NCBI GenBank assembly: GCA_004292745.1
Contig: RDXH01000003.1
Coordinates: 1-64,000, forward strand
Origin: Oscillatoriales cyanobacterium
Lineage (GTDB): Bacteria; Cyanobacteriota; Cyanobacteriia; Cyanobacteriales; Microcoleaceae
Reading direction: 5' to 3'
Length of the DNA stretch: 64,000 nucleotides
This document shows positions 9,541 to 48,500 of this stretch, piece after piece. Under the pieces are notes generated by a model that was given only the letters and a program-made list of their open reading frames with translations, was not told the DNA's origin and ran no database searches. A program made the position numbers and the translations under genes. Each line of letters starts with the position of its first letter. Position 1 is the first letter of the stretch.

Positions 9541-9674
9541 TCTGTTTTTAAGTGTTGGAGGAGGTACGGGAAGTGCGATCGCCCTTTGAAGCAATGTTTG
9601 TGTGGTTATGATAGAATGCCAGTAAACCTAGTTTGATTAGTGCAAGTCAGCCAACTGTTGCGAGGTTAAATGCT

Positions 9675-10670
9675 ATGACACAGTTTGTTTTAGATAGCTT
9701 TCAAGCTCTCAGCTCTAGTATTAAAACGAAAATAGAGGAAGCTAGGCAAAAGCTCGAAACGGAATTTGTTATTTCTGAATTTGATAGTTTAATATTAATA
9801 CTTACTACTAAAATTGATGAAATAAATAGTTTAGCTCCTTCCCATTGGAAGAATATCAAATTATTTAACCACGAAGACGCGAAGGACACGAAGTCAGAGG
9901 AAAGAAGTAGTACATCATTTGCCGAGGAGGGAGTAATACATGAACATTTAACTGCTGAAGAGTTATTTGTAATATCAAAGAAGTTTGAAGAGGTGAACGA
10001 ATTCGTACTTTATGACATTGGAAAATACGCTTGGAAAATATCTTTAGACGAAAAGTTAAAGGAGATCATAAAAAAATTCACTGATGATTGTAGTAAGGAT
10101 TTAAAGACTTGTCAAATATTGTATGAGGCTCTGGGCTTGATCGATCTAGCGAGCACTACAAAAGATGAGATAGATAGATGCGTACATTATGTTAGAGCAT
10201 ATCAACTATTCCGAGAACTTGCTACTAATTATTGGGATAATATTCCGGTTGAAGGTCGGCAACCTTTTTCACTCCTTCATAAAAAAATCTTAGAAGCGGG
10301 AACATTTTCGCTTTGTTCAGTATTTGCAAAAGATAAAGACCTTAAATCACTCCCGAAAAAGCAACTAGAAAATCTGTCTATTTCTGTAGAAGAAATCTCG
10401 AAATTAAATCCTTTGAATGGGATAATTAACTACCTACCTGAACTAGAAAAGGTGGTCAATATAGCTGTGGAGGAAACTAGGAAGTGGATAGAATTGGGTA
10501 TTGATATTAGCGATCCATGCGTGGTAACACCTTTAGAAGAGACGGCAGACAAATATCCAGCAATTGCTGAATATTGCAACGATATTTTAATAGAAATGGT
10601 AAAAGAACAAATGAATCCAAGAAAAAATTCCTCGCCTGACATAAACGCAGAAATTTTAGAGGAGTTTTGA
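9675..10670 (+). CDS. Hypothetical protein, unit with next gene
   Basis: A helical protein of about 331 residues that I do not recognise. I place the start at the ATG at 9675; a TTG at 9633 would add 14 residues. Residues around 75-100 (FNHEDAKDTKSEE) are encoded by the dispersed ACCACGAAGACGCGAAGGA-type repeat, so part of the chain may be a repeat insertion. There are no membrane segments and no signal. The region is AT-rich. The next gene follows after 37 bases on the same strand, suggesting an operon. It could be an accessory or conflict gene, but nothing in the sequence proves it. Confidence 0.7.
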   Translation: MTQFVLDSFQALSSSIKTKIEEARQKLETEFVISEFDSLILILTTKIDEINSLAPSHWKNIKLFNHEDAKDTKSEERSSTSFAEEGVIHEHLTAEELFVISKKFEEVNEFVLYDIGKYAWKISLDEKLKEIIKKFTDDCSKDLKTCQILYEALGLIDLASTTKDEIDRCVHYVRAYQLFRELATNYWDNIPVEGRQPFSLLHKKILEAGTFSLCSVFAKDKDLKSLPKKQLENLSISVEEISKLNPLNGIINYLPELEKVVNIAVEETRKWIELGIDISDPCVVTPLEETADKYPAIAEYCNDILIEMVKEQMNPRKNSSPDINAEILEEF

Positions 10671-10707
10671 TGATAAAATTTTAAGGAAAAAGTATGATTA
10701 AGTATTT

Positions 10708-11223
10708 ATGAGTTGGGAAGAATTTTTAGCGGAAGGAGATTATGCTGTAACACTTATTCGCAATGGACTGAGGAAACGGGGAATTAATGCAGGAGAGTCT
10801 TTTGTTACTCAGTTTAATACTGACGAAGATATTCCTGTGTATGATAATTTAGGCAATAAAATTTTTTGGATATCTGTAAAAACAGTGTTCCAGTCTATTA
10901 CAGATCCGATTCGACAAATACCGCCCGGTTATAAAGGTTGGATGTGCGGTGAACTAGAAAGTAAACAATGGGTAAACCCGCCAGCAGTAGTTATTTGGTA
11001 CTGTCGAAATACCACCACAGCTTGGGGAGCAATAACGCCAACACGTCCCAGTACCAAGTGGATTATTTATCCAGATAGATACGGTACAAAACTAGACAAA
11101 CGCAAAACAGCCGCGACAGGTGAAACTCATTATATTTACCCTTCTTATTGCGTGCCAAATTCAGAAATAATTAGTAAAGATGAAGTTATAAACTATATTC
11201 AGCAGTTATCCATATCATGTTAA
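10708..11223 (+). CDS. Hypothetical protein, possibly nuclease-like fold
   Basis: A 171-residue soluble protein starting MSWEEFLAEGDYAV. An N-terminal helix (VTLIRNGLRKRG) is followed by strands and the string NKIFWISVKTV, which loosely resembles the Asp...(hydrophobic)xVK core of PD-(D/E)XK enzymes; Asp residues precede it at DIPVYDNLG. This is only a pattern impression. The C-terminal half has Trp- and Tyr-rich strands. It lies 37 bases after the larger unknown gene and is probably co-transcribed. Confidence 0.7.
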   Translation: MSWEEFLAEGDYAVTLIRNGLRKRGINAGESFVTQFNTDEDIPVYDNLGNKIFWISVKTVFQSITDPIRQIPPGYKGWMCGELESKQWVNPPAVVIWYCRNTTTAWGAITPTRPSTKWIIYPDRYGTKLDKRKTAATGETHYIYPSYCVPNSEIISKDEVINYIQQLSISC

Positions 11224-16585: not shown

Positions 16586-16719
16586 GGGTATTTTGCTAAC
16601 TTTATTTACCGTCAATCTGTTTGAGAGCGGCCAGAATTTCTGGTCGTTTCATCCGTGCATAACCGCACAATTTCCGCTCTTTTCCGATCGCCTTTAAGCG
16701 TCTGAGGGAGAGACTGTCA

Positions 16720-16817
16720 TATAGCCTTTCTCAGAAAGATGAGGTACGACTGGGCATAGGGCATGGGGCATGGGGCATAGGGCATAGGGTTCCGTGGGCA
16801 TACCTCACTTTTTTGAG
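16720..16817. mobile_element. MITE copy 1 (TATAGCCTTTCTC family)
   Basis: About 98 bases beginning TATAGCCTTTCTCAGAAAG and ending ACCTCACTTTTTTGAG, with GGGCATA heptamers between. Its outer 29 bases (16719-16747) are the exact inverted complement of 17258-17286, and its inner 22 bases (16796-16817) of 17197-17218, so it is an inverted copy of the element at 17187-17285. The right terminal GAACCGCTATA is missing, so this copy is slightly truncated or diverged. Confidence 0.75.
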
Positions 16818-17201
16818 CAAAAACGGTTTTTTTGGCTGTGTTTTAGACTTAGTTTTCGGCTTGGTCTCTGGTGGTATTCCAGAGTTTTGGGCGGTGGCTC
16901 CAAGTTGGTGACGGAGCCTTGCAACTTGATTTTTCAAGTCGGATTCTAGGTCTGTAATTGCCTCCTCCACAAACTGATTAATTGTTTCGACGGTGAATTC
17001 TAATTTAATTGACAGCAATTTCTCGAATTCATCCAACAGTATTAACGCACCTTCCAAATTCATCTCATCCATAGCAGCAGACGTGGGAGGAATATTGCTG
17101 CCCGATCGCTCAATTTTTTTAGCCAATTTGTCTACCTTTTTGTTAAATGTTTGTTCAATTTCTTCGATTACAATCCTAATTTGTTCTATAGCGGTTCTCA
17201 A
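16731..17201 (-). CDS. Coiled-coil fragment between inverted MITEs
   Basis: An open frame of 156 codons starting at a TTG inside the right MITE and ending inside the left MITE. Residues about 5-110 are helical (IEQTFNKKVDKLAKKIE, LESDLKNQVARLRHQLG); a Lys/Pro-rich tail (KPKTKSKTQPKKP) follows, then MITE-derived residues. It is more likely the 3' part of the interrupted ParB-like gene than an independent gene. Confidence 0.45.
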   Translation of the reverse strand: MRTAIEQIRIVIEEIEQTFNKKVDKLAKKIERSGSNIPPTSAAMDEMNLEGALILLDEFEKLLSIKLEFTVETINQFVEEAITDLESDLKNQVARLRHQLGATAQNSGIPPETKPKTKSKTQPKKPFLLKKVRYAHGTLCPMPHAPCPMPSRTSSF

Positions 17202-17285
17202 AAAAGTGAGGTATGCCCTATGCCCTATGCCCTATGCCCTATGCCCTATGCCCATGAGTACCTCATCTTTCTGAGAAAGGCTATA
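17187..17285. mobile_element. MITE copy 2 (TATAGCCTTTCTC family)
   Basis: A 99-base palindromic element. The terminal arms TATAGCGGTTCTCAAAAAAG and (reverse) TATAGCCTTTCTCAGAAAGA match imperfectly over about 27 bases. The centre is a run of CCTATGC heptamers. It is flanked by TA on both sides, the target duplication expected for IS630/Tc1-type elements. It carries no gene. Confidence 0.75.
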
Positions 17286-17366
17286 TTTTGTCACCCTCTA
17301 ACTTCTGCTCAGTTAGAGCTTTTACTTGTTTTTTGAGCAGGTCTTCATTTTTTTTATTGATTGTTC

Positions 17367-17497
17367 TATAGCAATCCTAAATCATTTGCGTAATTATTGT
17401 AGGGGCTCTTGGCCCCGTGGTTGCCCCGATAGATCATGGGTAGGCACGCACCATCCACTACCCCTACAAATTTTGCGAATCATTTAGGATCGCTATA
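17367..17497. mobile_element. MITE copy of a second family (TATAGCGATCCTAAAT)
   Basis: A 131-base element with 23-base imperfect terminal inverted repeats (17367-17389 and 17475-17497, 19 of 23 matching), flanked by TA. Its centre is a second palindrome, TGTAGGGG / CCCCTACA. It supplies the stop codon that ends the ParB-like frame at 17493. Confidence 0.75.
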
Positions 17498-17945
17498 TTT
17501 GTTTTGTTAGACTCTCTACTTTTTTTTGAAATGATAGCTCAAATTGTTGCAGTAGACTCTCAAGTTGGGCTGTTTTTTGAATTGGCTGTGGAGCTAAAAG
17601 TTCCATTTCTGCTTGAGCAGCAACTACTTCCTCATCGCTCATTTCAAAAACCCAAGCCCACATTTGTTCAAGGCCAAGCTCTTTAGCAACCATGCACCAA
17701 TCAGCGCCGCAGACAACTTCGTATTCTTCTTCGTTGCTGTAAGCTTCTGTGGGGCGTACAATTAAAGGGATCAAGTTGCTCCCTTGCTCAATTAGACTTC
17801 TTCTGAGAGCTTCACGGCGATCGCGTATAATTTCCTTTCGCAGAGAATCAGGTATCGCAATTTGGGAAGTGTAAATTTGACTGTGACTAATTGGCTTAAT
17901 CCGCAAATATTCAATTATTCGGTTTTGATCTTGCGATCGATCCAT
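17493..17945 (-). CDS. ParB-like N-terminal domain protein (5' part of split gene)
   Basis: A 150-residue frame. Residues 10-120 look like a ParB N-terminal / sulfiredoxin-like domain: a SQIAIPDSLR strand, IEQGSNLIPLIVRP, then YEVVCGADWCMVAKELG where canonical ParB has GERRxxAA. The C terminus begins a coiled coil (LLQQFELSFQKKVESLTK) that is cut by the MITE at 17367-17497. The initiator ATG lies 380 bases downstream of the ParB-like gene of the cassette. Confidence 0.65.
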   Translation of the reverse strand: MDRSQDQNRIIEYLRIKPISHSQIYTSQIAIPDSLRKEIIRDRREALRRSLIEQGSNLIPLIVRPTEAYSNEEEYEVVCGADWCMVAKELGLEQMWAWVFEMSDEEVVAAQAEMELLAPQPIQKTAQLESLLQQFELSFQKKVESLTKQI

Positions 17946-18325
17946 CTTGTTAAAAACCCCCTTTTTTTATAAAAATTAGGTGTTTTAGGGATTTATGTAT
18001 ATCTACGCGGCTTCCGTGGGGCGACATCCCTGGCGATCGACAAAAGTTACTGCAATTCCTAAAACAAGCGACTGTGATGAGTTTAACTGGCTGGGGGACG
18101 CCAATGATAAATTGCTTAACTCATCTTTACTTTTGTTAGTGTGGAGCCTCACTGGGCTAACGTTCCCAGTGGGCACAGAGCGTGTTTTATTGACCCGGAG
18201 ATCCCCCCTAGCCCCCCTTAACAAGGGGGGAACAAGAGCATTCAAAGTCCCCCTTATTAAGGGGGATGCGAGGGGGATCTGAACCTAATTGGAAAGGCAA
18301 GAAAACACGCTACAGGAATTGCGAG
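17946..18325. other. Gap with CCCCCTTA-type palindromic repeat
   Basis: No gene supported. Bases 18195-18282 form a dispersed repeat: GATCCCCCCTAGCCCCCCTT, then AACAAGGGGGG, and an inverted version CCCCCTTATTAAGGGGG ending GGGGGATCT. Related copies lie at 26060-26175 and 31860-31960. Short open frames crossing this area are repeat-derived. Confidence 0.6.
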
Positions 18326-19255
18326 TTATGAGTATTTGTGCCACTTATCAATTATTTTAATCATTGCTTTGTCGGTTAACCCTTCAATACGTTTCACCGC
18401 ACTTGTAAATGACACAAACGGCTGAACCTCTCGTTCTTTGATTATTCTGTCGATTATCTGAGACTTCAAGCCAGCATCTTTAAAATTCGCCAACAATCCA
18501 GATTTATCTAAAGTATTGAGTGCTTCCAACAGCGATATTGATTCGGAAGCTACGTTTTCAACTTCTGGTATCCTCTCTACCACCGCTTGTTTTTCGGGTG
18601 GCGACTCTGATTTCAACTCATTAATTCTGTTTGTTAACTCAGCTTCCACTAACAGAGGTACTTGTTGTAAAAGTCTGGTTTCTAATTCTTGTATACTCTG
18701 GGCTAACACCTGTTTTTCACGGGAAAACTCGGCTTTTAATTCATTAATTTGGTTTTCAAACTGAGCTTCAAGATTGGTTAGTCGCTGTTCTAAACTGGAT
18801 GATGATTGAGGAGTTTCATTTTCACCGGAATTAGGGACTTCGACCAAAGAAACCGGGTTTTTAATTGAATCTGGGGGCTGCGATGAAGTATTTTCGTACA
18901 AAAACCCGGTTTCGGGGATCTCAACTAAATTCTCAGTTGTTGTACATTTTCTCAGCGCTTGAACTTGCTCTAGTAGAAGTTCTTCATTTTCTGGTTCCAG
19001 AATAAATGCTCCGATTGTCTCGCCTTTCATAGGGTTGATTTCCCTGGCTTTCGCCGCCGCATAGTATTCAAAGTCTCCGTCTACTATCTCGTAGGCGTCC
19101 ATCCCGTTGCGCCGGAGAACTATTGGATTAATCAATCCTCCTAATTCTAAAATTAGTTGGGCGACTTTCTCCAAATCGCGATCGGCAAAATTGGAACGGG
19201 GCACTGTAGATGTAATTTTTTTTACTGCTACCAACGACGGGGATAATTTTTGCAT
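18326..19255 (-). CDS. ParB-like partition protein without evident HTH
   Basis: A 309-residue protein. The N-terminal domain (about residues 5-110) resembles the ParB N-terminal fold: VPRSNFADRDLEKVAQLI, GGLINPIVLRR, YEIVDGDFEYYAAAKA. A long coiled coil spans about residues 140-235. The C terminus (FVSFTSAVKRIEGLTDKAMIKII) looks like helix-hairpin-helix rather than the usual ParB HTH and dimerisation domains. About 20 residues near 120-140 (ETGFLYE...KNPVS) are encoded by an inserted palindrome at 18849-18913. The start codon overlaps the stop of the ParA fusion (TAATG), showing translational coupling. Confidence 0.8.
   Translation of the reverse strand: MQKLSPSLVAVKKITSTVPRSNFADRDLEKVAQLILELGGLINPIVLRRNGMDAYEIVDGDFEYYAAAKAREINPMKGETIGAFILEPENEELLLEQVQALRKCTTTENLVEIPETGFLYENTSSQPPDSIKNPVSLVEVPNSGENETPQSSSSLEQRLTNLEAQFENQINELKAEFSREKQVLAQSIQELETRLLQQVPLLVEAELTNRINELKSESPPEKQAVVERIPEVENVASESISLLEALNTLDKSGLLANFKDAGLKSQIIDRIIKEREVQPFVSFTSAVKRIEGLTDKAMIKIIDKWHKYS
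18849..18913. repeat. AAACCGGGTTTTT palindrome inside ParB-like gene
   Basis: Arms GAAACCGGGTTTTT (18849-18862) and AAAAACCCGGTTTC (18900-18913). The right side continues into GAAGTATTTTCGTAC, the inverted form of the segment seen in the polA copy at 46881-46947. It is in frame and adds about 20 residues to the protein. Confidence 0.8.
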
Positions 19256-20766
19256 TATTTCTCACCTATCTTTTCCAAAACTTCCATTGCTAATACTTCA
19301 AACTCTTGGGAAGCGACTGAATCTGGCTTAAAGTCTAACACCGAAATGGGGTCGGCAATTTCCATATCTCCGAATATTTGAGTTTGTTCTGCACACTTAG
19401 CCAAATCATCTCTTTCATAAATTACGCTTTCCATAATTTCCATACCGTAACGTTTGGGAATTGCATCCCTCCGCCTAGGCAAACTGTACTGTATAAATTT
19501 AGCGTTAGTTGAGATTTTACAAGGAAGTACACCTAAAACCTGTAGAGGATTTTTGCCGATTTGTTTCTTAAATCCATTAACTTTTTTGATAAAATCTTTG
19601 ACATTAATTAATCCTTGATTCGCAAAAGGCTTTAAGTCAGAAGGAATAATTAAATAATCGGCTGCAATCAAGGCAACTCTGGCATAAAAATTCAAAGATG
19701 GTGGCGTATCAATCAATACAATATCGTATTTATCTTGTACTTCTGCTAGTTTCTGTATCAGAATCATTCTACTGTAATCCAGTGAGTTTAGTTCTGTTTC
19801 ATATTGCATTAAATCAATGTGAGAAGGAATTACATCTATTGCTGGAGTGCAAAAATTAGACTTTCTAGCTACTTCTGATATTGAGTAAAAATCCTCTGAT
19901 TGTAAGATGTGCAGAATATTTTTGTGTTTCAAATCATCATCTTCTTCGTCATCAAATTTGACTAAACCTGTGGCAAAGGTTGTATTAGCTTGACTGTCTA
20001 AGTCAATCACCAAGACTCTTTTACATTGCTTGCTGAGGGCGGCGGCTAAATTTACTACGGTTGTAGTTTTGCCGACTCCGCCTTTATTGTGGTAAACAGC
20101 AATTATTTTCATGGTATTTTGACTGGTTTTAAAGACTAAATCTAAGGGAATTTCTGGTTTAATTTCAGTATTAACTGGCAAAAATTCCGGGACTTTTTCC
20201 GGTTCTGAGATTTGACTTGGCTCAGGTTCTGCGGTGGCGGGATTATTTAGCTGTACTGGTACTTCGCTCGTTAACTGAGGACTAACTAAATTAATTTTAG
20301 GATCTTTTAGTTCGAGATTTTCTGGACTTTTGATGATTCTTAAACTATCTCTGCCAATTAAAGCAATAATTTCATCGATTCTGGTTTCAAGTTCTTGGCC
20401 AGAGCAATTGAATACTAGCTGAATCTCGGAGGCTGCTATTTCATATATTCTAATTTCTTTCGCATTGGTGATCAATCCGTAGCGAATGTTTAAACTTGTT
20501 AAGTAACGTTTCAGTCTCCTGATGTGGCGGTCTAAATTTTCCCTGGGATGTTTTGCCTCAATTACTACGCTCAGCGGCGAGTCTGCATCGATGACTATGG
20601 GGATAATTTGGGTGGCGAAGGATAGGAAGTCTAGACGGATATTCCCAAATGCTATTTCTTGGTGCCAAGTATCGGGGGTATAGCCTAACTTTGGCAACAA
20701 ATAGCTGACAATTAGTTTGGTTTCTACTTCGCTTTCGTTGCGGCAGTTATTCGGATTGAAATTCAT
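19255..20766 (-). CDS. HsdR_N-like nuclease domain fused to ParA ATPase
   Basis: A 503-residue fusion. Residues 10-115 match the N-terminal domain of type I restriction R subunits / PD-(D/E)XK: helix with Glu13 and Glu15, Asp46 in IRLDF, Glu70-Ala-Lys72 in VVIEAKHP, then the GLITNAKEIRIYE strand. Residues 150-215 are a Pro/Glu linker. Residues 219-500 are a full ParA/Soj ATPase: deviant Walker A KGGVGKTT (about 228-235), DLDSQANTT, DTPPSLN Walker B and LIIPSDLKPFA. Family knowledge says ParA uses ATP to position DNA or cargo; the attached nuclease-like module suggests DNA processing or binding. A methylase or HsdS partner is not present. It is translationally coupled to the ParB-like gene. 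Confidence 0.88.
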   Translation of the reverse strand: MNFNPNNCRNESEVETKLIVSYLLPKLGYTPDTWHQEIAFGNIRLDFLSFATQIIPIVIDADSPLSVVIEAKHPRENLDRHIRRLKRYLTSLNIRYGLITNAKEIRIYEIAASEIQLVFNCSGQELETRIDEIIALIGRDSLRIIKSPENLELKDPKINLVSPQLTSEVPVQLNNPATAEPEPSQISEPEKVPEFLPVNTEIKPEIPLDLVFKTSQNTMKIIAVYHNKGGVGKTTTVVNLAAALSKQCKRVLVIDLDSQANTTFATGLVKFDDEEDDDLKHKNILHILQSEDFYSISEVARKSNFCTPAIDVIPSHIDLMQYETELNSLDYSRMILIQKLAEVQDKYDIVLIDTPPSLNFYARVALIAADYLIIPSDLKPFANQGLINVKDFIKKVNGFKKQIGKNPLQVLGVLPCKISTNAKFIQYSLPRRRDAIPKRYGMEIMESVIYERDDLAKCAEQTQIFGDMEIADPISVLDFKPDSVASQEFEVLAMEVLEKIGEK

Positions 20767-20779
20767 GTTTCATTGCGAA

Positions 20780-20891
20780 TCGGACATTGGACATTGGGCA
20801 TTGGGCATTGGGCATTGGGCATTTGTAATTCGTAGCAAATAACCAATAACCAATGACCAATAACTAATGACTGCTGACTAATGACTGCTGA
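20780..20891. repeat. GGGCATT and ATGACT heptamer repeats
   Basis: Tandem GGCATTGGGCATTGGGCATT units (about 20784-20822), followed by CCAATAACCAATGACC and ACTGCTGACTAATG units up to the desA stop. They separate the ParA fusion promoter region from desA. Confidence 0.8.
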
Positions 20892-21944
20892 CTACTTAGT
20901 TTGAGCTTTAAAATCTTCAAATGTCAGATAGCCACCAGCAGGATCGTAGAGGTGGCAGTTGTCGGCAATCCGCTTCATCAAAGACCAAGAAAACTTGGTT
21001 TCATAGAGATGTTCTTGCCAATTTTTCTTCAAGCTGCTGTGGGCTAGGCGCAAGTTGTACCAGGGAATAGCAGTTGAAAGGTGATGGGGAACGTGGACGT
21101 TAATGTCGTGGCACAGGAACTCTACCCAGCGGGGATAATCACAGTGAACTGTTCCCGATAGTTGGGCTTGGGCTTCGTTCCATTCTGAAGGTTCTTTAAA
21201 TGAAATGTCTGGTGCTGTATGGTGAACAATGGTGAAGGTGCTCATCCAGAAATGGTAAACCATCCAGGGGAGTAACCAAAATTTGACGAATCCCCAGATT
21301 CCGGTTGTAGCAATTAAAATCGGAAATCCGATCGCAGCACCGATTAAAACTACTAACACAGAAAAGCGGACTTGTTCTTGTTTCTGTTGGCCTTTGAAGC
21401 GCCACCACATGAAGTGCACTTTTGCCCAATGGGCGATCGAGCCTACCCACCATAGCGGACCAAAAATTAAACTATAAGCTATTTGTAAAACCTTGGGAGC
21501 AGCAGCGTAGTCTTCTGCTCTCATGGGCTGCCAAGCATTATCTTCCCCAATTTTGTTGGTATGCTTGTGGTGATAATTATGTCCGTGACGCCATGCGTGA
21601 AACGGGTAAATTAATGGCAAAAATGCTAGATGTCCTACTAAATCGTTTACCCAGCGGCGGTTAGAAAACGAGCGGTGTCCGCAGTCGTGCCCGATCACAA
21701 AAAAACCGGTTAATGCAGTACCTGTGAAAATCCACATTACTGGTAGTAGAAACCAAGGGGATACTGCTAGGCTCCAGTAACCGACAGCAACTAGCAAAAC
21801 GTTGATGATGACTTTTGTCCAAGCTTTGCGGGGGTTTTTGACGAATACTTCCCGCGGCAGGGTTTTGAGAATATCTTTGAGGCGCAAGTTGGAAGTGTCA
21901 CTTGCGGATGTCAAATTTAGTGGTTTTTCGATCGATGCTGTCAT
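20892..21944 (-). CDS. desA: Delta-12 acyl-lipid fatty acid desaturase
   Basis: A 350-residue membrane di-iron desaturase that adds the delta-12 double bond to glycerolipid acyl chains using ferredoxin, important for cold tolerance of thylakoids. The three His boxes are present: GHDCGHRSF (about residue 85), HNYHHKHTN (about 121) and HVPHHLS (about 287). Four hydrophobic segments fit the family. The N terminus and length match DesA better than DesB (omega-3). The 5' leader contains a perfect hairpin 25 bases before the ATG. Confidence 0.93.
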   Translation of the reverse strand: MTASIEKPLNLTSASDTSNLRLKDILKTLPREVFVKNPRKAWTKVIINVLLVAVGYWSLAVSPWFLLPVMWIFTGTALTGFFVIGHDCGHRSFSNRRWVNDLVGHLAFLPLIYPFHAWRHGHNYHHKHTNKIGEDNAWQPMRAEDYAAAPKVLQIAYSLIFGPLWWVGSIAHWAKVHFMWWRFKGQQKQEQVRFSVLVVLIGAAIGFPILIATTGIWGFVKFWLLPWMVYHFWMSTFTIVHHTAPDISFKEPSEWNEAQAQLSGTVHCDYPRWVEFLCHDINVHVPHHLSTAIPWYNLRLAHSSLKKNWQEHLYETKFSWSLMKRIADNCHLYDPAGGYLTFEDFKAQTK

Positions 21945-24724: not shown

Positions 24725-24746
24725 TTTCTGTTTCTCCTTTGTTTTA

Positions 24747-24767
24747 TGATAATGATAATCGTTATTG
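24747..24767. promoter_or_regulatory. Fur/Zur-type operator between znuA and znuC remnants
   Basis: TGATAATGATAATCGTTATT fits the 7-1-7 Fur-family pattern (TGATAATnATTATCA-like, tandem half sites). It sits 14 bases before the ATPase ATG and 23 before the ZnuA start. Zur is the likeliest regulator from the gene context; sequence alone cannot exclude Fur. Confidence 0.7.
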
Positions 24768-24780
24768 TTCAAGATTTACT

Positions 24781-25006
24781 ATGTTAGAGGTTCGACATCT
24801 CGCTGTCAACTACCGAGGCGTTACCGCTGTTGAGGATGTCAGCTTCAGCTTGGAACCTGGGCAAATCGTGGGGGTAATAGGGCCTAACGGCGCGGGGAAA
24901 AGTACGATGGTGAAGGCGATTCTGGGGTTAATTCCGACGGAAAACCGCTGATAATATTCAGCGGGCTTATGGCGATCGTGTAATATTAGTGCAACGGGAG
25001 ATTTAA
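24781..25006 (+). pseudogene. ZnuC/MntA-type ABC ATPase with internal deletion and frameshift
   Basis: The frame starts [13 protein letters not shown] and keeps Walker A ([17 protein letters not shown]), then stops at 24949-24951. In the +1 frame immediately after, DNIQRAYGDRVILVQREI ends at 25006, resembling the C-terminal end of the same family, 3 bases before the permease start. Signature motif, Walker B and the H-loop are all lost. Expected length is about 250 residues. Confidence 0.8.
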
Positions 25007-25891: not shown

Positions 25892-26346
25892 GATTATCAC
25901 AGAATACGGGGGGCTTAGAAACTGGGTTTGTTTAACAAAAATACTGGTTGTAATATCAATTCTAACTGCATCGGAATGATATAGAGGAGACAACATTGCC
26001 CATAGGTGTCAACAATCAGGTCAAACGCAGTCATAGACTATTCTTTGACTATTAAGCCCAGATCCCCCTAGCAAAGAGAACCCACCCCCAGCCCCTCCTT
26101 TGAGGGGAGCAAGAAGGGGGGACAGGAATCTTCTCAAAGTCCCCCTTCGATCGGGGGATTTAGGGGGATCTCCGAGCAATAAATAGTTTTAACTGAACCG
26201 TATTGAATTATAAGTAGAATAGCAGGGGCTTAGAAACCGGGTTTTTTTACGGAAATACTGATTGTAACTCGCAGATTCGGTAAAAAACCCGGTTTCTCTG
26301 TCGGAGTTCGGCGAAAACTGAACTATCCGCCCTTAAAAAAATTCCC
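25892..26346. repeat. Gap filled with dispersed palindromic repeats
   Basis: Half copy of the AAACCGGGTTT element near 25914-25945; a GGTGTCAACAATC arm related to the 3760-3995 element near 26004; a GATCCCCCTAG...CCCCCTTCGATCGGGGGATTT block at 26060-26175; and a full AAACCGGG palindrome at 26232-26297. No gene supported. Confidence 0.75.
26232..26297. repeat. AAACCGGGTTTTTT palindrome, intergenic copy
   Basis: Arms AGAAACCGGGTTTTTTTA and TAAAAAACCCGGTTTCT with GGAAATACTG...GCAGATTCGG between and CTGTCGGAGT after. The polA copy (46881-46947) shares both the inner CAGATTC segment and the outer GTCGGAGT. Confidence 0.85.
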
Positions 26347-45593: not shown

Positions 45594-48500
45594 TTATTTG
45601 GTTTCCATCCAATTTTTGCCCGCGTGGATGTCAACTATCAACGGTACACTCAGAGGTAGGGCATTTTCCATGGCATCTTTGATTTTTGGCTGCAATTCTT
45701 CCCATTCCTGGGGAGGTACTTCAAAGATTAATTCGTCGTGAACTTGCAGCAGCAATCGCGCCTGATAGTTTTGCAAAACTTGGTTGACTTCAATCATGGC
45801 AAGTTTAATGATATCAGCACTGGAGCCTTGGATGGGAGCGTTGGCTGCCGCCCGCAAAGATTGGGCATCATCTCTACTGAGAGATTTAAGTCTATCGGGG
45901 TGGATGTCTTGGGGGTTAGTGCCTTTTAAGTCGCTGAGGCGATCGAAGTTTAAGTAGCGGCGGCGGCCGAGTATGGTGGAAACATAGCCAAGGGCGATCG
46001 CCTCTTTTTTGACTTGCTCCAAATATTCAAATACTTGACTATAACGCTGGTTAAATCGTTCAATAAACTTTTTACCATCTGCTGAGCTTTTGCCCATAGA
46101 TTTACCAAACTTAATCGCCCCCATCCCATAAATTACCCCAAAATTAATAGTTTTGCCAAACCGTCTTTCATCCGGCGTAACATCCTCTTTTTCAAATAAT
46201 AATTGAGCGGTGACTGTATGCACATCTCGGTTATTTTGATAAGCTTCAATTAACACAGGTTCTTGACTCAAATGAGCTAAAATTCGCAGTTCAATTTGAG
46301 AATAGTCAGCCGACACCATCAGCCAACCTGATTCTGGTAAAAAAGCCTTGCGAATTTGCCGCGAAAATTCGGTACGGATGGGAATATTCTGTAAATTTGG
46401 ATTGGAAGAAGAAAGCCTGCCCGTCCCGGTAGCAGTTTGGTTAAAATCTGTATGCACTCGCCCGGTATCCGCCCGCACTAACTGCGGCAAAGCATCGACA
46501 TAGGTAGATTTCAATTTGGACAATGTTCGGTGTTCTAATAAATCGTCTACAATCGGATGGTCTCCTTGGAGTTTATCCAAAACAGCGGCATCGGTGGAAT
46601 ATCCTGTTTTGGTTTTCCGAGATTTTTTCTGAAACTCTTCGGGGATTTTTTCTAATAAGATTTCGCTTAGTTGTTTTGGGGAGGCTAAATTAAACTTTCT
46701 CCCCGCTGCTTGATAGGTGTTTTCTTCTAGTTTGGCTAATCTCTGTTCTAGTTGTTGTGAGAGTTCTTGCAGATAGGCTGAATTGATGCGAATGCCGCGA
46801 TGTTCCATTTCTGCTAAAATTGGTTCTAGGGGCTGTTCGACATCAAGCAGTAATCGATGTAAAGACTTTGATGGGGGCCCAGAAACCGGGTTTTTTGACG
46901 AAAATACTTCGTTATGACCAGCAGATTCAGTAAAAAACCCGGTTTCTTCAGTCGGAGTGCGTAAGTCCTGTTCATCTAATTCGGATCTGAGTTTATCTAC
47001 TAATTGAAATGTGGTGTACACATCCATGCCGCAGTAGTCTGCTACTTCGGGAATGCTGATGTCAGCAATTGTTTTGTGTTTGGGTACTAATTCTTTGTAG
47101 CTTTTGGCGACAATTCCTAAGTATTTCCTGGATAATTCGCTGAGGCTGTGGCTGGTTTCGGGATTGAGTACATAACTGGCTAGCATGGTGTCGAAGATGA
47201 CTCCTGTTAGTTTAATTCCCTGACAGCGGAAGATGAGGCGATCGAATTTAGCATTTTGCAGTGCTTTGGGATAATTTTCGCTTTCTAAAATCGGACGCAA
47301 AGTATTTAAAACTGTGGTTTTGTCTAAGTTTTTCCCTGTTTTATGTCCGGTTGGGATATAGGCTAAATCTTGTTCGCCGGTTCCCCAACAACAGCCAATT
47401 CCGACTAATTCGGCGTCTCGTGGTTCTAAGGCGGTGGTTTCGGTATCCCAGGCCACTGGTGTTGTTTTGTCTGTGCAGGTTTCTAGCAGTTTGACTAATT
47501 CATTTAACTGTTCTATGTTTTGAATTATCCGGGGTTTGATTGGTAATTTGTGTTCTTGTTGAGCTGATTTGGTGTCAGCATGAGACCAAAACCATAACTC
47601 GTCTGCTTCTGAATTTTCTAAAGAAACAGGCAAGATGCCTGTTCCACTATGAGTTGAATCTAAAGCAACAGGCAAGATGCCTGTTCCACTGTTGGAGGAT
47701 ATTCCTTCTTCATTCCCCCCTTGGGGGGGGTAGGGGGGGGTTCTTGTTCCTTCTTCATTCCCCCCTTGGGGGGGGTAGGGAGGGGTTTTTGTTCCTTCTT
47801 CATTCCCCCCTTGGGGGGGGTAGGGGGGGGTTATTCTGCTTGGGGGGGTTGAATTCTCTTCTACACCTCCAAACCGTTTTTGGATTTGTTTGACTTTGTT
47901 TAAAAATGTCTTAAATTCCAATTTTTCCAGCATCGGAATCAAGGCTGATTCGTCAAAACCGATCAACTGGCAATTTTCTAAGTTGATTTCTAAGGGAACG
48001 TCTTGGACAATTGTCGCCATGCGCTGAGAATGATAAGCAGCTTCTTTGCCTTCTTCTAGCTTTTTCTTAGTTGCGCCTTTAATCTCATCTATCGCAGCAT
48101 AAATTCCGTCCAGGGAATTGTAAGCTTCCAATAATTGCAGGGCGGTTTTGTCGCCAATGCCTTTGACTCCGGGAATGTTGTCGGATTTGTCGCCGCAGAG
48201 GGCTTTGTAATCTATTACTTGTTGGGGCAATATGCCGAGTTTTTCTTGGACTTGTTCGGGACCGTATTCTTGGGATTTGCCTTTTCCCGATCGCCTTAAT
48301 TCCTCTGTGCTTAAGTATAAAACGCTGATTTTTTTGGCGGTGTCTACTAATTGAAATAAATCTCGATCGCCCGTGAGGATTTTGACATCATAACCGGAGG
48401 TGCTGGCTTTGTTGGCCAAAGTTCCCAAAACATCGTCGGCTTCGTAGCCGGGAGCGGTGATGGCTGGTAAGTTTAAATAGCCCAGGAGTTCTTGGAGGTT

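What the first reader, a model, noticed from the sequence alone, without database searches (positions are those of the whole stretch)
16731..20766. ParA fused to a restriction-nuclease-like domain, coupled to ParB-like partners
The 503-residue protein joins a PD-(D/E)XK domain like the N terminus of type I HsdR (Asp46, Glu70, Lys72 all present) to a complete ParA ATPase. It is translationally coupled (TAATG) to a ParB-like protein that lacks a recognisable HTH and ends in a hairpin-helix motif; a second ParB-like gene follows. No methylase, HsdS or replication gene is seen. A partition-style ATPase carrying a nuclease-like module plus non-canonical ParB-like proteins could be a mobile-element stability, DNA-processing or anti-invader system. 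Seen: domain motifs and gene overlap. Known: ParA and HsdR_N families. Inferred: a single functional system.
Basis: partly seen in the sequence, partly recalled or inferred. Interest (0 to 1): 0.75.

Follow-up and report, generated by a model that had tools for sequence, protein, structure and literature searches.

The report
Nuclease-tipped ParA with ParB-like partner
Many cyanobacteria carry a conserved gene pair in which a DNA-positioning ATPase is fused to a DNA-cutting-type domain and sits beside a ParB-like protein whose tail is swapped between strains; what it does is untested, and we found no description of it in print.

Summary
The fusion is real. Window 19255-20766(-) encodes an HsdR_N-type PD-(D/E)XK domain joined to a full ParA, overlapping (TAATG) a ParB_N protein that ends in a helix-hairpin-helix instead of an HTH. 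The 'second ParB-like gene' is one ~360-aa gene in most relatives and is broken here by three small repeat inserts. The pair is chromosomal; 28 of 29 genomes of the genus match the fusion (25 over its whole length), and an N-domain search hit 60 of 386 cyanobacterial genomes. D46, E70 and K72 are kept in 77 of 77 N-domains; dN/dS is 0.12. The partner keeps the ParB fold but not the GxxR arginine, HTH or ParA-binding motif. The locus is a mosaic: the N-domain follows housekeeping genes, ParA and ParB_N are exchanged together, and the partner's tail (HhH, Rho_N/SAP or an unnamed domain) is exchanged alone, even between two divergent ParA families. Plain ParA+partner pairs exist (minority), so the nuclease-like domain is an optional module. 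Some cyanobacterial plasmids that also carry ParM or canonical ParAB, and a phage contig, have the same layout. It is neither ParABS nor type I restriction. I favour nuclease-armed DNA surveillance (0.40) over segregation (0.28); both are untested.

The parts
19255..20766 (-). nuclease-like domain fused to ParA, 503 aa
20347..20766 (-). residues 1-140: HsdR_N-type PD-(D/E)XK domain (E11, E15, D46, E70, K72, Y88)
   Evidence: HSDR_N_2 E 1.4e-5, 25 of 27 relatives at E<=1e-3, residues 77 of 77 for D46/E70/K72/Y88, dN/dS 0.119
20119..20346 (-). residues 141-216: variable linker
   Evidence: alignment; dN/dS 0.595
19258..20118 (-). residues 217-503: ParA with invariant KGGVGKTT in the alignments of 11 and 27 rows
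   Evidence: AAA_31
18326..19255 (-). PB1: ParB-like partner, 309 aa, start overlaps the ParA stop
18956..19252 (-). PB1 residues 2-100: ParB_N fold without the GxxR arginine (GDFE)
18849..18913 (.). small palindromic repeat lying in frame inside PB1 (three copies in the window)
18605..18802 (-). PB1 residues 152-217: predicted long helix (coiled coil)
18329..18532 (-). PB1 residues 242-309: helix-hairpin-helix tail, the module that is exchanged between strains
16602..17945 (-). PB2: second ParB-like gene of another partner type (ParB_N, coil, Rho_N/SAP tail in relatives), broken in this genome
17366..17498 (.). insert 1 in PB2, inverted ends (C/A)TATAGC(A/G)ATCCTAAAT
17190..17286 (.). insert 2 in PB2, ends TATAGC...GCTATA (limits approximate)
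16720..16816 (.). insert 3 in PB2, resembling insert 2 in the other orientation (limits approximate)

Best explanation
A two-gene DNA-surveillance module. Inferred mechanism: ParA binds the nucleoid as an ATP dimer; the ParB-like protein, dimerised by its coiled coil, contacts ParA through its ParB_N domain and DNA through an exchangeable tail (HhH, Rho_N/SAP or a third domain); where the tail marks a target DNA, ParA brings its N-terminal PD-(D/E)XK domain there and the DNA is cut or nicked, most likely DNA of competing plasmids or phages. Shown: the fusion, intact catalytic-type and Walker residues, the conserved two-gene coupling, loss of the HTH and of the GxxR nucleotide motif in the partner, joint exchange of ParA with ParB_N, and independent exchange of tails. 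Inferred: cutting, the target, the role of ParA movement, and that the tails bind DNA.
For: Catalytic-type D46, E70, K72 invariant in 77 of 77 N-domains from two ParA families under purifying selection like that on ParA (dN/dS 0.119 against 0.095). HSDR_N_2 in 25 of 27 relatives. The partner's tail changes type at least 10 times on the ParA tree of 61 labelled rows; L089 and L090 share 95% N-domain, 98-99% ParA and 95% ParB_N identity but 33% in the tail, one having the unnamed tail and the other Rho_N. A model of the unnamed tail built only from family-1 rows finds it in two family-2 partners at 113 and 90 bits. Such exchange of a presumed recognition part resembles specificity swapping. In one genome (G121, L105) the ParA is fused instead to an SF1-helicase C-terminal part, next to an ORF with the helicase N-terminal part and weak, below-cut-off MTES_1575/DUF559 nuclease matches. 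Two Nostoc plasmids with the layout also carry ParM and canonical-type par genes, a third carries canonical ParAB, so the module is not needed there as the only partition system.
Against: No nuclease or defence activity has been tested. The neighbours are mostly housekeeping genes: among 84 neighbours from 26 chosen loci no PADLOC family matches more than 2 (65 families matched at 1e-10, 25 shown), and Pfam lists glycosyltransferases and metabolic genes, so it is not a defence-island gene. It is nearly fixed in its genus and its N-domain follows housekeeping genes, unusual for an accessory defence gene. N-less ParA+partner pairs persist (L113-L116; G394, G395), so the pair does something without the domain. 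In 64 of 77 N-domains the Gln of the HsdR QxxxY motif is Arg or Lys (the importance of that Gln is recalled). A profile of the N-domain finds no nuclease among PDB sequences (best E 0.047, a chance hit), the window's HSDR_N_2 score is only just over cut-off, and the AlphaFold model of the fusion is too poor to use (mean pLDDT 52.6).
Confidence: 0.4

Rival explanations
1. A chromosomal segregation or nucleoid-positioning system of polyploid cyanobacteria: ParA and a non-canonical, clamp-less ParB-like adaptor distribute chromosome copies or another cargo, and the nuclease-like domain processes or only binds DNA.
For: Complete ParA; ParB_N fold; chromosomal (L008 lies in a record titled chromosome, complete genome) and nearly fixed in the genus; the genome has no canonical ParB over the TIGR00180 cut-off; N-less versions exist.
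Against: Hit in only 60 (N-domain) or 54 (partner) of 386 cyanobacterial genomes; tails swapped between close relatives; no parS-like site within 3 mismatches in the window; HTH, GxxR and ParA-binding motif missing; an invariant catalytic-type triad is not needed for segregation; plasmids carry it beside other par systems.
Confidence: 0.28
2. A DNA-processing device for repair, recombination or DNA uptake, in which the partner's HhH or SAP tail recognises DNA structures and the nuclease trims them.
For: HhH and SAP/Rho_N domains are common in such proteins (recalled); housekeeping neighbourhood; strong conservation.
Against: Patchy distribution and tail swapping; no repair or competence genes stood out among the listed neighbour families; Rad52-like genes sit near it only on the phage contig and pLBA.
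Confidence: 0.14
3. A relic of a plasmid or phage partition module, domesticated or decaying in the chromosome.
For: Same layout on three Nostoc plasmids, pLBA, a Pseudanabaena plasmid and a phage contig; PB2 is broken in the window; the ParA frame is broken in 4 of the 48 strong N-domain genomes.
Against: Low dN/dS in the N-domain and ParA, invariant motifs, and 44 of 48 strong hits in one long open frame argue against decay.
Confidence: 0.08

Closest known systems
ParABS partition systems (ParA/ParB/parS)
   Same: ParA-type ATPase followed by a translationally coupled gene with a ParB_N fold.
   Different: ParA carries a PD-(D/E)XK domain; the partner lacks HTH, GxxR and ParA-binding motif; no parS-like site in the window; exchangeable tail.
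Type I restriction enzyme subunit HsdR
   Same: N-terminal nuclease-type domain of the HSDR_N_2 family with D, ExK and Tyr kept.
   Different: ParA instead of the SF2 translocase; no HsdM in the window; QxxxY Gln replaced in 64 of 77.
ParB-CTPase-fold fusions surveyed in PNAS 2025 (PMC12704722; outline and passages read)
   Same: ParB_N fold joined to new domains, often linked to mobile elements.
   Different: That survey names only the DUF3850 fusion as consistently next to parA (passage) and required cut-off Pfam matches; HhH or SAP tails next to a nuclease-fused ParA are not in the passages I saw.
Noc, KorB and PadC (non-segregation ParB relatives)
   Same: ParB_N fold used outside segregation; top fold matches of PB1 include Noc, ParB and KorB.
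   Different: Those are CTP binders with an HTH or other partners (PMC12704722 passages); PB1 lacks the GxxR arginine in 12 of 12.

Membership tests
ParABS | ParA ATPase with deviant Walker A (KGGxGKT) | tested here: met
   K228-T235 KGGVGKTT invariant in 11 and 27 rows
ParABS | ParB N-terminal CTPase fold | tested here: met
   ParB_N E 4.6e-7; Foldseek to Noc 7ol9 E 9.8e-5, ParB 7bnk, KorB 8qa8
ParABS | P-motif GxxR for nucleotide phosphates | tested here: not met
   position 63 is Glu in 11 and Ala in 1 of 12 PB1 rows; PB2-type rows have W or I at that place in 13 of 13
ParABS | central HTH that reads parS | tested here: not met
   no HTH family in PB1; L130, a canonical pair, shows HTH_ParB in the same kind of scan
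ParABS | ParA-binding motif LG-R/K-GL in ParB | tested here: not met
   absent on reading the window protein; motif as given in PMC12704722
ParABS | parS centromere near the operon | tested here: inconclusive
   0 matches to the 16-bp consensus (recalled) within 3 mismatches in the 64 kb; an unknown site cannot be excluded
Type I restriction-modification (HsdR) | PD-(D/E)XK N-terminal domain | tested here: met
   but no nuclease hit among PDB sequences
Type I restriction-modification (HsdR) | SF2 translocase domain | tested here: not met
   no helicase family in the 503-aa protein
Type I restriction-modification (HsdR) | HsdM and HsdS partners | tested here: inconclusive
   no N6_Mtase on the window's contig, five elsewhere; HsdS not searched
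Known anti-phage systems (PADLOC 2023) | match to a system model over the protein | tested here: not met
   best hit PDC-M28B E 6.9e-10 covers only the P-loop, residues 215-257
Known anti-phage systems (PADLOC 2023) | protection against phage or plasmid | not testable with these tools
   needs an experiment
Plasmid partition module | carried by a plasmid and needed for its stability | tested here: inconclusive
   window copy is chromosomal by kinship (L008); plasmid-borne relatives exist beside other par genes

The most novel reading that the evidence does not exclude
A class of nucleoid-patrolling immune systems: a ParA ATPase tipped with a restriction-type nuclease, guided by a clamp-less ParB-like adaptor whose DNA-reading tail is recombined between strains like the specificity subunit of type I restriction enzymes, used by chromosomes, plasmids and phages of cyanobacteria against each other.
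Probability: 0.3. Interest if true: 0.85.

Novelty: new variant of a known kind. Interest (0 to 1): 0.64.

Why it matters
ParA-type ATPases are known as movers of DNA and other cargo, and PD-(D/E)XK domains as DNA cutters; a conserved natural fusion of the two, coupled to a ParB-like adaptor that has lost its nucleotide motif and swaps its tail, would link intracellular positioning with DNA cleavage. It could explain how cyanobacteria limit plasmids or phages without a methylase-based self mark, or show that ParB-fold adaptors work without a CTP switch. It is directly testable in culturable cyanobacteria.

Tried and rejected
Mobile-element stability module: family-1 fusion not found on plasmids (no record covers 80% of the 503 aa among the 5000 kept; partner 1 weak record; N-domain 12 records, none annotated as ParA; L109 N-domain none) nor phages (N-domain none). 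More divergent fusions were then found on plasmids and a phage contig by another route, so the idea is kept as a minor rival.

Defence-island test: negative. Canonical chromosomal ParABS: own genome has no ParB over cut-off; 61 of 386 genomes have one, many on short contigs. L130 looked like an N-less family member but is a canonical ParAB with HTH_ParB; it was in the ParA tree.

Structure of the fusion: AlphaFold model too poor, not searched. PDB sequence search of the N-domain: no nuclease. parS consensus: none. Conserved iterons or inverted repeats in 18200-21000: only low-copy matches and the palindrome inside PB1.

Rows dropped: ParA tree left out L059, L062, L072, L079 (broken frames) and the short divergent ParAs beside the locus except three as outgroup; L105 (helicase-fused) was labelled plain. 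Distance test used 21 of 22 Microcoleaceae-type sequences (L003 lacks the control gene). Neighbour test used 84 of 85 listed proteins of 100-900 aa from 26 loci chosen by me. In one search four partners of 79 had no tail type. The 77 N-domains include the same or near-identical species twice and were picked by similarity to family 1.

Literature: (word searches of open-licence PubMed Central papers) returned no paper that, from its listing, describes a ParA fused to an HsdR-type domain; most subscription papers are not in that library.
Full report
What is in the window. The 503-aa ORF at 19255-20766(-) has an HSDR_N_2 match at residues 17-114 (E 1.4e-5, 25.6 bits, cut-off 25) and a full ParA (AAA_31, E 9.9e-56). 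Its TAA overlaps the ATG of the 309-aa ORF 18326-19255(-), which has ParB_N (E 4.6e-7) and no HTH. The AlphaFold model of the partner (mean pLDDT 74.6, pTM 0.34) has a ParB_N fold, a 65-residue helix and a C-terminal helical hairpin domain; Foldseek's top matches are Noc, ParB and KorB, with sulfiredoxin and the SbnI kinase also listed; by sequence the tail matches the helix-hairpin-helix protein AF1531 (E 9.6e-5). The model of the fusion itself is poor (52.6) and was not used.

The second ParB-like gene. In 14 of 18 related loci the third gene is one ORF of 352-379 aa: ParB_N, coil, and a Rho_N/SAP tail (E 5.3e-4 in L001, below cut-off). In the window it runs 17945-16602 and is interrupted by three short inserts, the first with clear inverted ends. 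It is homologous to the partner of the second ParA family, so it looks like an orphan partner; it stands alone in G129 (L123).

Distribution. Twenty-one full relatives were found in GTDB genomes; the partner follows in 21 of 21, overlapping in 17 of 21. An N-domain profile hit 60 of 386 cyanobacterial genomes: 48 strongly (E 1e-38 or better), 12 weakly. Of the 48, 44 have one open frame of 449 aa or more and 4 a broken frame. The 12 weak ones are a second, divergent family (25-28% identical to the window protein in the 10 aligned), also fused to ParA, with an adjacent partner in 11 of 12. The partner profile hit 54 of 386: 47 next to the family-1 fusion, 5 next to plain ParA (L113-L116, L118), 1 next to a ParA fused to an SF1-helicase part (L105), 1 a fragment at a contig end (L117). 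Two more genomes of the window's family have the plain form (G394, G395). In the genus 28 of 29 genomes match: 25 over the whole length, 2 in two pieces, 1 partly; the one without is 74% complete. Apart from ParA and partner clusters, neighbours are not shared across lineages, though one site is kept within a lineage, and the two ParA families occupy the same site in relatives: beside the desaturase-type genes (L109 and L092) and beside the 294-aa ParA with the ileS-like gene (L106 and L095; gene names from reading).

The nuclease-like domain. D46, E70, K72, E11, Y88, G97 and T100 are invariant in 77 of 77 N-domains; residue 84, the place of Gln in HsdR's QxxxY, is Arg in 44, Lys in 20 and Gln in 13. 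HSDR_N_2 is found in 25 of 27 relatives. dN/dS over 91 pairs: N-domain 0.119, ParA 0.095, ParB_N 0.181, coil 0.173 (72 pairs), HhH 0.466, linker 0.595 (89 pairs). Against: a PDB sequence search with the N-domain profile gave only chance hits, so the nuclease fold rests on Pfam matches and motifs.

The partner is not a canonical ParB. The GxxR arginine is missing in 12 of 12 PB1 rows (Glu in 11, Ala in 1) and 13 of 13 PB2-type rows; in PMC12704722 this arginine is the one mutated as the negative control for nucleotide binding (passage). HTH and the ParA-binding motif are missing too.

Mosaic evolution. In 21 Microcoleaceae-type loci, pairwise DNA distances of the N-domain correlate with two flanking housekeeping genes (Spearman 0.61-0.78; the halves of those genes with each other 0.69-0.78). 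The second half of ParA correlates with ParB_N (0.70) but hardly with housekeeping genes (0.16-0.24); the first half of ParA is intermediate (0.34-0.53). Coil and HhH correlate with each other (0.76) and with nothing else (at most 0.21) (on proteins, N-domain against ParA was -0.05). In 18 Nostocaceae loci ParA and ParB_N correlate at about 0.9, the N-domain with them at 0.29-0.39, the partner's C-terminal half at 0.33-0.41; no housekeeping control was at hand there. L089 and L090 are 95% identical in the N-domain, 98-99% in ParA, 95% in ParB_N and 33% in the tail. Three tail types were seen: HhH (56 of 79 partners), an unnamed domain (10), Rho_N/SAP (9), unassigned (4); the type changes at least 10 times on the ParA tree of 61 rows (no shuffle control). 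The unnamed-tail model, built from family 1 only, scores 113 and 90 bits in two family-2 partners. Plain ParAs lie inside the fused ones on the tree (6 changes, at least 4 forced by well-supported branches; this count includes three outgroup rows, L130, and L105 labelled plain), so the domain was probably lost more than once.

On plasmids and a phage. Nostoc sp. UHCC 0870 plasmids unnamed9 (35.7 kb) and unnamed4 (55.1 kb) carry a 449- and 454-aa nuclease-type-ParA fusion followed by a Rho_N partner; both also carry ParM/StbA and further ParA- or ParB-type genes. Unnamed10 (beside canonical ParAB), pLBA and a Pseudanabaena plasmid have a more divergent form with a P-D...E-N-K motif by eye; the N-domain model detects two of these three weakly (15.9-18.0 bits) and not the third. 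A virus contig (L170) has the same pair; its further stretch encodes an endolysin-like and a replication-initiation-like protein; I looked at about half of it.

Interpretation. Shown: a conserved, modular two-gene unit whose ParA carries an intact-looking nuclease-type domain and whose partner swaps its tail. Inferred: the tail reads DNA, ParA and partner touch through ParB_N (they are exchanged together), and the domain cuts. Swapping of the presumed recognition part, the intact triad and the presence on competing replicons favour surveillance against foreign DNA (0.40). Near-fixation in the genus, housekeeping neighbours and the surviving N-less pairs favour a chromosomal role (0.28). It fails the tests for ParABS and for type I restriction, so it is filed under neither; as a ParA-plus-adaptor unit it is a new variant of a known kind.

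Noticed in passing
18849-18913, 26233-26296, 46882-46946: Three copies of a ~65-bp palindromic repeat (GAAACCGGGTTTTT arms; 6 arm matches, 0.10 expected); one lies in frame inside PB1.
   Followed up: partly
24739-25003: An ABC-transporter ATPase gene is shortened: residues 1-55 and 222-241 of the L020 homologue (241 aa) match at 100% and abut at 24945/24944, the middle is missing.
   Followed up: partly
L123:7001-9674: In G129 an intact orphan PB2-type gene stands without the fusion, followed by a gene that reads like IscB (name from reading, not tested).
   Followed up: no
L105:3006-6974: In G121 a ParA with a PB1-type partner is fused to an SF1-helicase C-terminal part, next to a second-family fusion pair whose own frame is broken.
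   Followed up: partly
L080:6600-7484 and similar: Many Nostocaceae loci have another ParA of about 294 aa, usually divergent, next to the fusion; role unknown.
   Followed up: no
9633-11223: Two ORFs (345 and 171 aa) in a low-G+C, skewed stretch with no convincing Pfam match.
   Followed up: no
L211:5995-6300: A short ParB_N-like ORF resembling PB1 (50% over residues 3-103) on a virus contig, without a ParA hit nearby.
   Followed up: partly
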